Assembly: GCA_021162815.1 (NCBI GenBank)
Contig: JAGGXW010000022.1
Coordinates: 1 to 40,225, forward strand
Direction of reading: 5' to 3'
DNA: 40,225 nucleotides
DNA from: Thermoplasmata archaeon
GTDB lineage: Archaea; Thermoplasmatota; E2; UBA202; JdFR-43
The notes beneath the pieces are model-generated. The model saw nothing but the letters and a program-made list of their open reading frames with translations. It made no database searches and had not been told where the DNA came from. Shown here piece after piece: positions 3,709-40,225 of this stretch. The position numbers and the translations under genes were made by a program. Every line of letters begins with the position of its first letter. Position 1 is the first letter of the stretch.

Positions 3709-4632
3709 ATGAAATTAGTTGTAGCTCTTGGAGGCAATGCCATCGCAGGAAAGAAGAAGAATGCCGATGTAAAAGAGCAATTCACATTGACGGCAAGAAG
3801 CATGAAAAGCATTGCAGAAATGATAAAAAACGGGGCGGAAATAGTTATAACCCACGGCAATGGACCACAGGTGGGCGCCATTTTATTGCAGCAGAAAATA
3901 GCTAAGGAGATTATTCCTCCAATGCCATTGCATGTATGCGTTGCCCTTACACAGGGACAGATTGGCTATATGATTCAGCAGGCTTTACTGAATGAACTTA
4001 TGGAGAGAGGTATAAAGAAGAGTATTGTTTCCATAATAACTCAGGTTATAGTGGATGAGAATGATGAGGCATTCAAAAATCCCACAAAGCCAATAGGACC
4101 ACTCTACAGCGAGGAAGAGGCAAAGGAAATGATGAAGAGCTACACAATGGGAAAATATGAAAATGGTTATAGAATATTGGTTCCATCTCCTGAGCCAAAG
4201 TCAATTGTTGAAAGCAAAATAATAAGAAAATTGATTGAGAAAGATACAATTGTTATAGCCTCTGGGGGCGGAGGAATACCTGTAGTAAGGAAAGGAAATA
4301 AACTTCATGGCATAGATGCAGTTATTGACAAGGACCTTGCAAGCGAGAAACTGGCAAGCGAGGTAGAAGCAGATATACTGCTTATCATAACGGATGTTGA
4401 CAATGTTTTTATAAACTATGGAAAAGAAAATCAGCAGGCTCTGGAAGACATATCAGTGTATGAGCTTGAGGAATATTACAATGAAGGACAATTTCCTGCT
4501 GGCTCCATGGGTCCAAAAGTGAAGGCAGCAATAAGATTCATAAAAAATGGAGGAAAAAGGGCAATAATAACATCACTGGATAAATCATGGGATGCATTGA
4601 ATGGAAATGCAGGTACACAGATTCATGGTTGA
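3709..4632 (+). CDS. arcC: carbamate kinase
   Basis: KLVVALGGNAI, ITHGNGPQVG, ASGGGGIPVV, GSMGPKVKAAIRF; start placed at MKLVV. Confidence 0.95.
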   Translation: MKLVVALGGNAIAGKKKNADVKEQFTLTARSMKSIAEMIKNGAEIVITHGNGPQVGAILLQQKIAKEIIPPMPLHVCVALTQGQIGYMIQQALLNELMERGIKKSIVSIITQVIVDENDEAFKNPTKPIGPLYSEEEAKEMMKSYTMGKYENGYRILVPSPEPKSIVESKIIRKLIEKDTIVIASGGGGIPVVRKGNKLHGIDAVIDKDLASEKLASEVEADILLIITDVDNVFINYGKENQQALEDISVYELEEYYNEGQFPAGSMGPKVKAAIRFIKNGGKRAIITSLDKSWDALNGNAGTQIHG

Positions 4633-5825
4633 AGGCGATTAAACAATTCATTTATTCCAACATTTTTCTGTTCCCCGCTTTTCATATCCTTTATTATGAC
4701 TTCTCCCCTCTCCCATTCATCAGGAGCTATTATCACAACCTTTGAAATGCCCTTTCTATTGGCATAATCAAGTGATTTCTTGATATTTCTGGCCATCAGA
4801 TCCATTTCCGCCTTAATTCCTTCCTTTCTCAGCATTCTGGCAACCTTTATTGCCTCTCTCGGCATATTCATGTGAGCGATATAAACAATATCATTTTCAT
4901 CTTCAAATGTATATCCCTCCATTTCAAGGGCTAGCAAAGCTCTATCAAAGCCTATGGCAAATCCTGATGTTGGAACATGTCTGCCTCCAAGTATTGTTAT
5001 TAGATTGTATTCTCCTCCACCACATAGCTGCTTCTCTGCCCCTAACTTTGGAGCATCTATCTCAAAAACTGTACCAATATAATAATCCAGCCCTCTTGCA
5101 ATAGAAAGATCAAGGTTGAAGGGAACAGAGAACTCCTCAAGAAATGATAATATCTCCTTCATTCTGTTTGCCTCTTCAAATTCAAGTTCATCAATATTCT
5201 TTGTCTCTATAAATTCCATAAATTTTTCAAATTCCTCCTTTCCAAGTCTTCTTTCTATGCTTTCAAAATCCTTTTTGTCAATGAGTCTCATCATCTCCGC
5301 ATCATTTGCTCCCATGGTAGAAAGAAATCTTCTGAGGATATCAAGGTTACCGACTCTCACCACCACATTCCTAAGTCCTATGGTTTTCAGTATATCATAG
5401 GCCATGGCTATAAGCTCTGCTATCGCCTCGGGTCTGTTTGTTCCTATTAACTCACATCCAAACTGCCAGAATTCTCTGTATCTTCCCTTCTGAGGCCTAT
5501 CATATCTGAAGCAGTTGCCAAAATAATAAAATTTTAATGGTTTTGTCTCCATCTGCAATTTCTCAACATACATTCTGATAACAGGGGCCGTAAGTTCGGG
5601 GCGGAGAGCGATTTTCCTGCCTGATTTATCCTCAAATGCATATATCTCATCCATTATCTGCTCCCCAGATTTTAAAGTGAATAATTCAAGGTTTTCTATT
5701 GTTGGAGTAGAAACCTCCTCATATCCGTATTTCTCAAAAACATTTCTCATAACAGACTCAACCTTTCTCCTTTTTTTCATATCTGATGGGAGAAAATCTC
5801 TCGTGCCTCTCGGTTTACCAATCAT
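4623..5825 (-). CDS. hisS: histidyl-tRNA synthetase
   Basis: RGTRDFLP, LRPELTAPVIRMY, FRYDRPQKGRYREFWQFGCE, ARGLDYYIGTVFE. Confidence 0.97.
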   Translation of the reverse strand: MIGKPRGTRDFLPSDMKKRRKVESVMRNVFEKYGYEEVSTPTIENLELFTLKSGEQIMDEIYAFEDKSGRKIALRPELTAPVIRMYVEKLQMETKPLKFYYFGNCFRYDRPQKGRYREFWQFGCELIGTNRPEAIAELIAMAYDILKTIGLRNVVVRVGNLDILRRFLSTMGANDAEMMRLIDKKDFESIERRLGKEEFEKFMEFIETKNIDELEFEEANRMKEILSFLEEFSVPFNLDLSIARGLDYYIGTVFEIDAPKLGAEKQLCGGGEYNLITILGGRHVPTSGFAIGFDRALLALEMEGYTFEDENDIVYIAHMNMPREAIKVARMLRKEGIKAEMDLMARNIKKSLDYANRKGISKVVIIAPDEWERGEVIIKDMKSGEQKNVGINELFNRLQP

Positions 5826-38294: not shown

Positions 38295-39755
38295 ATGAAA
38301 TTTGACCTCACTATCACAATAAAGTTAAGCAGCGATGCCTCTCATCTCAAAGAGGAACTGGACGAATTTATGAAAGATATGGAAATAAATGCAGATGTTG
38401 AATGGAAGATTGAGGATGATAATCTAATCCTCCATATACTCTCCACAGAAAGAAGAAGTCATGAATGGGCTCTCCGTCTCTACAAAAAACTTGCTGCATT
38501 TTTTGGAAAGAGGAAAATAGGATTAAGAGAGATGCATGTTGAAAGATATGAAATAGAGTTTGAACTGGAGAGAGAGGCATTGAAGGAGGTTACAATACCC
38601 TTTGCAGATGTAAAATTTGATGGAAAAACTGCAAGAATGATAATAGTGGATAAGGGAGAGGAGTTCATAAGACAGAACTATGTCGACAGAATGATCAGAA
38701 GAATTAAAGAAAAAGTTGAACAGCAGTATTATGAGGGCAAGAAGGAATACTGGCAGCTTTTATGGAAGAGTGAGGAAAAGCAACCCGTATGGAATAAGGA
38801 CCCATCTGAAGAAATGCAGAAGCGGGGATGGATCGTCCTCCTTGGCAAGGGAAAATGGTTTTACCGCCCGCAGGTAGCTGCCATAATGCGAGCAATGGAA
38901 AGGATAGCTCTGGAGAAGGTTGTTCTTCCTCTGGGATTTAAGGAAGTCATAGAGCCAATGCATGTTTCATTCGATACATGGCTCAGAACAGGACATCTTG
39001 AGGGCATGCCTGGCGAGATTTACTACATATGCGAACCAAAAAGCAGGGATGAAAAGCAGTGGGAGCGTTTCATTGACCTTGTTAAAATAACCAGAGAAGT
39101 GCCGGAGGATGAACTTCTCAAGAATTTAAAGCCTCCAAGGGAAGGGGTTGTATATGCTCAGTGCCCCAACATATATGCCTCAATGAAAGGAAAGACCATA
39201 GCGGATGAAAGCCTTCCTCTTCTCCTTTTTGAGCATTATGTTCCATCCGATAGATACGAATCCGGAGGAAAACATGGCATTGAAAGAGTTGATGAATTTC
39301 ACAGAATAGAGGTTGTTTACATAGGAACAAAAGAGCAACTTCTTGAGTTGAGAGAAAAGCTCATTGAGAGATACAAACATGTGTTCAATTCCATACTTGA
39401 TTTAGAGTGGAGAATGGCGAGAGTGACACCATTTTACATGCAGCAGGCAGGCATGCTTGGAATGGAGGAGAGTGATGCAAAGGGAACAATAGATTTTGAG
39501 GCATGGCTGCCATATAGGGGAGATAGAAGTAAGGAATGGCTTGAATTTCAGAACATTTCAATCGTTGGTGATAAATACACAAAGGCGTTCAACATAAAGG
39601 GACAAAAGGAAGAGCTGTGGAGTGGGTGCTCTGGAATAGGGCTGGAGAGATGGATGGTTTCTTTCTTGGCTCAGAAAGGACTTGATCCTGATGCATGGCC
39701 AGATAGCTTTAAAAAATATCTACCAGAGATACCAGAGGGACCGAAGTTTTTATGA
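38295..39755 (+). CDS. serS: seryl-tRNA synthetase, rare (methanogen-type) form
   Basis: RRSHEWALRLYKKLAAFFG N-domain; AQCPNIYASMKGKTIADESLPLLLFEHYVPSDRYESGGKHGIERVDEFHRIEVVYIGT; LWSGCSGIGLERWMVSFLAQKG; Zn-ligand Cys/Glu/Cys layout. Confidence 0.9.
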   Translation: MKFDLTITIKLSSDASHLKEELDEFMKDMEINADVEWKIEDDNLILHILSTERRSHEWALRLYKKLAAFFGKRKIGLREMHVERYEIEFELEREALKEVTIPFADVKFDGKTARMIIVDKGEEFIRQNYVDRMIRRIKEKVEQQYYEGKKEYWQLLWKSEEKQPVWNKDPSEEMQKRGWIVLLGKGKWFYRPQVAAIMRAMERIALEKVVLPLGFKEVIEPMHVSFDTWLRTGHLEGMPGEIYYICEPKSRDEKQWERFIDLVKITREVPEDELLKNLKPPREGVVYAQCPNIYASMKGKTIADESLPLLLFEHYVPSDRYESGGKHGIERVDEFHRIEVVYIGTKEQLLELREKLIERYKHVFNSILDLEWRMARVTPFYMQQAGMLGMEESDAKGTIDFEAWLPYRGDRSKEWLEFQNISIVGDKYTKAFNIKGQKEELWSGCSGIGLERWMVSFLAQKGLDPDAWPDSFKKYLPEIPEGPKFL

Positions 39756-39812: not shown

Positions 39813-40113
39813 TCAATCACTTTTTATCTTTTCAAGCTCCTTTATCCGCTCTCCGAGGTTTTTTGGCAGCGTTGATAGCTTCCATATCTTTCCTTATTTC
39901 TCCTTCATCAAATGCTATCCCATAAACACCTCTGTTTGCTACGATCATCTCGTGTTTAAGGAAGAATAAGTTAATGGCAGTGATTGGACTTTCTATACCA
40001 TATCTTCTACCAACAACAATCGCACCACCAATTTTATTTCTAAGTTTCCCTCTGATGCACTATGTGCGATTCATAAATGCTTTGGTCTGGGCAGATACTT
40101 TGATGATATGTTA
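39813..40113 (-). pseudogene. NADPH-dependent FMN reductase / iron-sulfur flavoprotein-like remnant
   Basis: Minus-strand frames give TYHQ..VSAQTKAFMNRT*CIRGKLRNKIGGAIVVGRRYGIESPITAINLFFLKHEMIVANRGVYGIAFDEGEIRKDMEAINAAK then, after a frameshift in an A-run, NLGERIKELEKIKSD*. Confidence 0.75.
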
Positions 40114-40225
40114 AAGCCCGCCCCCGCATTATAAAAGGAGGTGGGTAAAAATGTTATATGCAGGATGGATGTGCATAAGAAGTTTTGTCAGGTCATAATA
40201 TGTACAAAAGAAGGAGAAGTTATAA
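40114..40225 (+). mobile_element. left end of an IS110-family element, frameshifted, truncated by the window
   Basis: ATG at 40151 gives MLYAG, then after a 1-nt shift MDVHKKFCQVIICTKEGEVI, the N-terminal signature of IS110-family transposases; preceded by TATA-like attataaaag and GGAGGTG; left boundary approximate. Confidence 0.65.

What the first reader, a model, noticed from the sequence alone, without database searches (positions are those of the whole stretch)
40114..40225. IS110-family element begins at the right edge; possible bridge-RNA system just outside the window
MLYAG|MDVHKKFCQVIICTKEGEVI appears when a 1-nt frameshift at 'gcaggatggatg' is corrected. IS110-family recombinases are guided by an element-encoded bridge RNA (established knowledge). 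Only about 40 nt separate the flavin-reductase remnant from the ATG, which fits the IS1111-like layout with its noncoding RNA region downstream of the gene (inference).
Basis: partly seen in the sequence, partly recalled or inferred. Interest (0 to 1): 0.6.

Follow-up and report, generated by a model that had tools for sequence, protein, structure and literature searches.

The report
Clipped archaeal IS1111-type bridge-RNA insertion sequence
The last ~125 bases of the window are the left end of a multi-copy jumping gene of the IS110/IS1111 family, cut off by the assembly, and its complete sisters in related uncultured Thermoplasmatota archaea carry, just downstream of the transposase gene, an RNA-like region whose two loops match the DNA on either side of each insertion, so it is a new archaeal member of a known RNA-guided system.

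Summary
The window is one whole contig of a Thermoplasmatota MAG. Its last 127 bases recur identically at the end of contig C42, so the contig stops inside a repeat. In an intact FMN-reductase gene of a relative (93% DNA identity) the site is empty; the window copy diverges at TG (40101-40102), so the element starts at about 40103. The window holds ~123 bases of it: one arm of the subterminal repeat, the SD, and the first ~20 codons, with a 1-nt deletion. The body is absent from the bin. Intact relatives give the rest: a 326-aa DEDD transposase (PF01548, PF02371, IS621-like), an 11-bp subterminal inverted repeat, and ~150 nt of noncoding DNA downstream, with two guide-like loops. Across six guide types, the guides fit their own insertion flanks better than any of 720 reassignments; two nearly identical copies in one genome carry different guides, matching different targets. 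Guide order is the IS1111 one. Many copies sit in the terminal repeats of a MITE family related to an IS5-like transposon. RNA production, guiding and transposition are inferred, not measured. New member of a known kind; interest modest.

The parts
39859..40100 (-). 3' part of an NADPH-dependent FMN reductase gene (C-terminal half, one in-frame TAG), interrupted by the element; the left target half lies at its right edge (GCAGATACT-T)
   Evidence: 93% DNA identity to an intact gene in G011:C19; the intact protein matches PF03358, E=8.1e-24; translation
40101..40102 (+). inferred core dinucleotide TG shared by target and element ends
   Evidence: empty site ...GATACATTG|TTGAAATAAAC versus occupied ...GATACTTTG|ATGATATG; TG at both junctions of sister copies
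40103..40225 (+). left end of an IS110/IS1111-family element, truncated by the contig end
   Evidence: 127-mer 40099-40225 repeated at the end of C42; homologous to intact copies in G011
40112..40122 (+). left arm TAAAGCCCGCC of the subterminal inverted repeat; the right arm GGCGGGCTTTA is seen only in relatives
   Evidence: sequence
40137..40143 (+). Shine-Dalgarno-like GGAGGTG before the usual start codon ATG at 40152
   Evidence: sequence; conserved in copies
40152..40225 (+). start of the transposase gene; MLYAG in the frame of ATG 40152, MDVHKKFCQVIICTKEGEVI in another frame from ATG 40166, after a 1-nt deletion relative to kin

Best explanation
The window ends inside a copy of an IS1111-type element of the IS110 family. 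The element encodes a DEDD/serine recombinase and, downstream of it, a bridge RNA (seekRNA) with two internal loops. In the target loop the 5' strand (RTG) pairs with the top strand right of the core and the 3' strand (LTG) with the bottom strand left of the core; the donor loop carries sequences matching the element's own two ends. Insertion joins target and circularised element at a shared core (TG here, AG in cousins). The window copy went into an FMN-reductase gene at GATAC(A/T)TTG|TTGAAATAAAC. Many sisters went into the terminal inverted repeats (GGGTYTG|TCGAAAA) of MITEs related to a co-resident IS5-like transposon. SHOWN by sequence: family, layout, guide/target agreement, empty site. 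INFERRED: transcription of the RNA, circular intermediate, strand exchange, and that the window copy carries such a region.
For: Window's 127-mer shared with C42, contig = window. Intact copy L033: PF01548 E=1.9e-25, PF02371 E=1.8e-26, NF033542 'IS110 family RNA-guided transposase' E=1.2e-75, IS621 and ISCro4 structures E about 1e-18; D7, E52, D90, D93 and S249 align with the catalytic residues of IS621 (the identity of the IS621 residues is from memory). Two G011 copies define ends, 11-bp subterminal repeat and ~150-nt 3' noncoding region. L033: loops CTTTTTCGA and GGGTTTG against flanks GGGTTTG|...|TGTCGAATAA; L032 in the same genome: TTTTGTGCC and TGCTTTG against flanks TGCTTTG|...|TGTAGCACAA. 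Six guide types: left matches 33.5/48, right 48.3/60; the cognate pairing is the best of all 720 permutations for right and for total (p=0.0014), p=0.004 for left. Inner hairpin of the target loop keeps pairing through two-sided changes at 2 of 4 pairs, covariation score reached by 1 of 500 shuffles. Core TG/AG agrees between right element end, target and donor-loop guide in types A-C, F versus D, E. Empty site. Guide order top-strand complement first, as reported for IS1111 (PMC11187229).
Against: The window copy's own right end and RNA region are not in the bin. No RNA-seq or biochemistry. The guide register was fixed by conserved RNA marks, but after I had seen the flanks; six types are few. 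Type C has a poor left match (2 of 8; L040 is an internally deleted copy). The RNA fold is only moderately better than shuffles for some members (z -3.2, -1.2, -1.2, -7.1), and no Rfam family matches. The G000 copies carry a 1-nt deletion that shifts MLYAG out of frame.
Confidence: 0.9

Rival explanations
1. The G000 copies are dead or non-autonomous: the 1-nt deletion destroys the transposase start and the elements are relics or move only in trans.
For: Deletion in both G000 contig ends, absent from most (~26 of 30) copies. G010 holds many internally deleted copies that still have both ends, so movement in trans is plausible in the family.
Against: MDVHKK has its own in-frame ATG (40166) and an upstream in-frame GTG (40141); loss of five residues might be tolerated. 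The rest of the gene is unseen. Two identical 127-base ends suggest recent spread.
Confidence: 0.45
2. Target choice is made by protein-DNA contacts and the loop/flank agreement is coincidence or an old footprint of the flanks.
For: No RNA evidence exists for these archaea; six guide types only.
Against: Cognate pairing is best of 720; L033 and L032 share 92% DNA but differ in loops exactly as their flanks differ; RNA guidance is experimentally established for the family (PMC11208160, PMC11187229).
Confidence: 0.04
3. The IS110-like start is an assembly chimera or contamination at the contig end.
For: The body of the element is missing from the bin and the contig stops there.
Against: The same 127-mer ends a second contig; 95% identical ends sit at many contig ends of a same-genus MAG; the left flank is continuous with a gene that is intact and uninterrupted in a relative.
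Confidence: 0.03

Closest known systems
IS1111-group elements with seekRNA (ISEc11, ISKpn4, ISPa11, ISPst6; Siddiquee et al. 2024, PMC11187229)
   Same: DEDD transposase; subterminal inverted repeats of about 11 bp; long noncoding region downstream of tnp; top-strand complement 5' of bottom-strand complement; natural reprogramming of guides
   Different: Archaeal hosts; terminal extensions here look longer (about 9 and 6 nt outside the repeat, core not counted) than the 7 and 3 bp quoted for IS1111; RNA not observed
IS621 bridge RNA (IS110 group; Durrant et al. 2024, PMC11208160)
   Same: Recombinase homology over nearly the full length (E=1.3e-18), catalytic residues aligned; two-loop RNA logic with target and donor guides and shared core dinucleotide
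   Different: RNA region downstream, not upstream; short left end; long subterminal repeat; guide order reversed; core TG or AG instead of CT
IS4321/IS5075 (IS1111 family members that target Tn21 terminal inverted repeats; Partridge and Hall 2003, cited in PMC11208160)
   Same: An IS1111-type element that inserts in the terminal inverted repeat of another transposon
   Different: The target here is the repeat of archaeal MITEs and an IS5-like transposon; sequences were not compared

Membership tests
[quoted passage not shown]
   Intact relative L033. For the window's 28-residue fragment no family reached the threshold (too short), but it matches L033 residues 4-25
IS110 family | Catalytic D-E-D-D and serine | tested here: met
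   L033 D7, E52, D90, D93, S249 aligned with IS621; only the first D is within the window
IS1111 group | Subterminal inverted repeats of 7-17 bp | tested here: met
   TAAAGCCCGCC / GGCGGGCTTTA in G011 and G010 copies; left arm in the window at 40112-40122
IS1111 group | Long noncoding region downstream of tnp, short left end | tested here: met
   About 50 nt left, about 150 nt before the right repeat, in relatives; the window shows only the short left end
IS1111 group | Top-strand complement precedes bottom-strand complement in the RNA | tested here: met
   Types A, B, D, E, F, on the strand of the transposase gene; order rule from PMC11187229
Bridge RNA / seekRNA system | Guides match cognate target flanks | tested here: met
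   Best of 720 permutations, six types; one type poor on the left
Bridge RNA / seekRNA system | An RNA is made and bound by the transposase and is needed for movement | not testable with these tools
   No expression or biochemical data
Bridge RNA / seekRNA system | The window copy's own RNA region | not testable with these tools
   Right end not found in the G000 bin

The most novel reading that the evidence does not exclude
In this archaeal lineage an RNA-guided IS1111-type element has guides trained on the terminal inverted repeats of a co-resident IS5-like transposon and its MITEs, so that one mobile element uses an RNA to live in another, while near-identical copies in the same genome are re-aimed at other sites.
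Probability: 0.6. Interest if true: 0.42.

Novelty: new member of a known kind. Interest (0 to 1): 0.32.

Why it matters
It extends bridge-RNA/seekRNA recombinases with explicit guide, target and empty-site evidence to uncultured Thermoplasmatota, where I found no earlier description in the papers searched. Three guide types in near-identical elements within one archaeal genus, plus AG-core cousins, are a natural experiment on how guides are re-aimed, and archaeal versions could be of use as recombinases (inference).

Tried and rejected
Searching the own genome with PF01548 found nothing, because the body of the element is not in the bin. Rfam gave no match. Right-end patterns at 1-2 mismatches found none in G000. 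PF03358 against the own genome found nothing because the remnant is short, and 75 residues of the remnant alone gave no Pfam, NCBIfam or PDB match; it was identified through the intact relative. I first read the G010 copies that match only the first ~80 bases as a MITE family; they are internally deleted copies with several different deletions. I first took the shared right flank of many copies as part of the element; it is the target, the terminal repeat of a MITE with 9-bp duplications. No structure prediction was run, since sequence similarity already settled the family.

Full report
WHAT THE WINDOW HOLDS. The window is the whole of contig C20 of a 1.21-Mb MAG in 78 contigs. Named near relatives in the same family are Candidatus Thermoplasmatota and Thermoplasmata MAGs. 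The last 127 bases, 40099-40225, are identical to the reverse complement of bases 1-127 of contig C42, whose other flank is different DNA. That is the usual trace of an assembler with k about 127 stopping where a multi-copy element begins (inference). The 127 bases match elements in eight further genomes of the family, many again at contig ends.

BOUNDARY. A 93%-identical, uninterrupted copy of the left flank was found in G011 contig 19, as an intact FMN-reductase gene (PF03358 E=8.1e-24). Empty: GCAGATACATTG|TTGAAATAAAC. Occupied (window): GCAGATACTTTG|ATGATATGTTAAAGCCC. The element therefore starts after the TG at 40101-40102. The 127-mer begins two bases before that TG because the C42 copy has GGGTTTG at the same place. 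The gene runs on the minus strand, so its N-terminal half would lie beyond the element.

FRAMESHIFT. Most other copies (about 26 of 30 seen) read GCAGGTATGGAT; both G000 contigs and one G010 copy lack the T. In this genome MDVHKK can start only at ATG 40166 or an in-frame GTG at 40141, both poorly placed for the GGAGGTG at 40137-40143. Whether this copy makes transposase is open.

INTACT RELATIVES. In G011, L033 and L032 are 92% identical over about 1.2 kb and end together. L033 has an open frame of 326 aa; L032 is frameshifted. The protein matches PF01548 and PF02371, NF033542, and the IS621 and ISCro4 structures at E about 1e-18, with D7, E52, D90, D93 and S249 on the catalytic positions (which IS621 residues are catalytic is from memory). 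The left end is about 50 nt, the subterminal inverted repeat is TAAAGCCCGCC/GGCGGGCTTTA, and about 150 nt of noncoding DNA follow the stop codon.

GUIDES. The noncoding region folds into a hairpin with a large internal loop closed by an inner hairpin, then a second such structure. In L033 the 5' strand of the first loop, CTTTTTCGA, is the complement of the right flank TCGAAWAAA, and the 3' strand, GGGTTTG, equals the left flank. L032 has TTTTGTGCC and TGCTTTG, and flanks TAGCACAA and TGCTTTG. Cousins at about 50% protein identity behave alike: type D (HyVt-387) TTTTAG / AAAATTTTCT with flanks TTTTAG / AGAAAATT; type F TAATCTG / GATAGATACA with flanks TAATCTG / TGTATCTG. With a register fixed by conserved marks, six guide types were tested against all flanks: the cognate assignment is the best of 720 permutations for the right side and the sum (p=0.0014), and p=0.004 for the left. 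I had seen the flanks before fixing the register, so this is strong but not blind. Type C matches on the right only. A further copy, L213, has type-A guides and right flank TGTTGAAAAAATGA, one change from the type-A target over the first eight bases after the core. The second loop carries ATAGGTG (types A-C, F) or ATAGGAG (D, E), equal to the right end of the element including the core, which switches between TG and AG together with the target. The inner hairpin of the target loop is kept through two-sided changes in two of four pairs.

WHAT IS TARGETED. Seven or so G010/G011 copies lie in GGGTYTG|TCGAAAA, the terminal repeat of ~110-bp MITEs with 9-bp duplications (ATTTTAATC, ATAAATTCC, GAAATAAAT). 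In L047 the MITE plus its inserted element is flanked by the MITE's duplication GAAGCTTTT. In G000 the same terminal sequence occurs as the end of a repeated transposon (12 places); its kin in G007 encodes a DDE transposase nearest to the IS5 family but below the curated cut-off. The C42 copy of the window's element has the left flank GGGTTTG, the tip of that repeat. The window copy sits in a different site (TACTTTG|TTGAAATAA), which fits the type-A guides only partly (4 of 7 left, 6 of 9 right); its own guides are unknown.

COMPARISON WITH THE KNOWN. The layout, subterminal repeats, and guide order are those described for IS1111 by Siddiquee et al. 2024 (PMC11187229); the two-loop logic and shared core are those of Durrant et al. 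2024 (PMC11208160). Natural re-aiming is reported by Siddiquee et al., and IS1111-type elements that target terminal repeats of other transposons are known (IS4321/IS5075, reference). Nothing seen here departs from that scheme. The finding is a correct recognition of an ordinary, though well-supported, new archaeal member.

Noticed in passing
L040-L050, L067 (G010): G010 carries about 15 internally deleted copies of the element, several sharing the same deletion just after the first ~80 bases yet keeping both ends, as if moved in trans.
   Followed up: partly
L130-L152 (G010): A family of ~110-bp MITEs (GGGTCTGTCGAAAATTAAATGAA...TTCAACAAACCC) with 9-bp target duplications, at least 14 copies; the preferred landing site of the IS1111-type element.
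   Followed up: partly
G000 contigs C5, C8, C10, C13, C14, C23, C28, C35, C62, C76: A second multi-copy transposon with end GGGTTTGTCGAAAAAATGATGAA; kin in G007 encodes a divergent IS5-like DDE transposase (L233:1559-2554).
   Followed up: partly
window 38295-39755: Seryl-tRNA synthetase of the rare methanogen type (NF002120 E=9.1e-141, TIGR00415 E=1e-73), but below both curated cut-offs, so divergent.
   Followed up: no
L113 (Ca. Nitrosotalea sp., 4001-4990): A 36%-identical relative of the transposase in a Nitrosotalea MAG; its flanks and noncoding region were not examined.
   Followed up: no
window 39835-40059, minus strand: The interrupted FMN-reductase remnant also has an in-frame TAG where the intact relative has TGG (W), so it has been decaying since or before the insertion.
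   Followed up: yes
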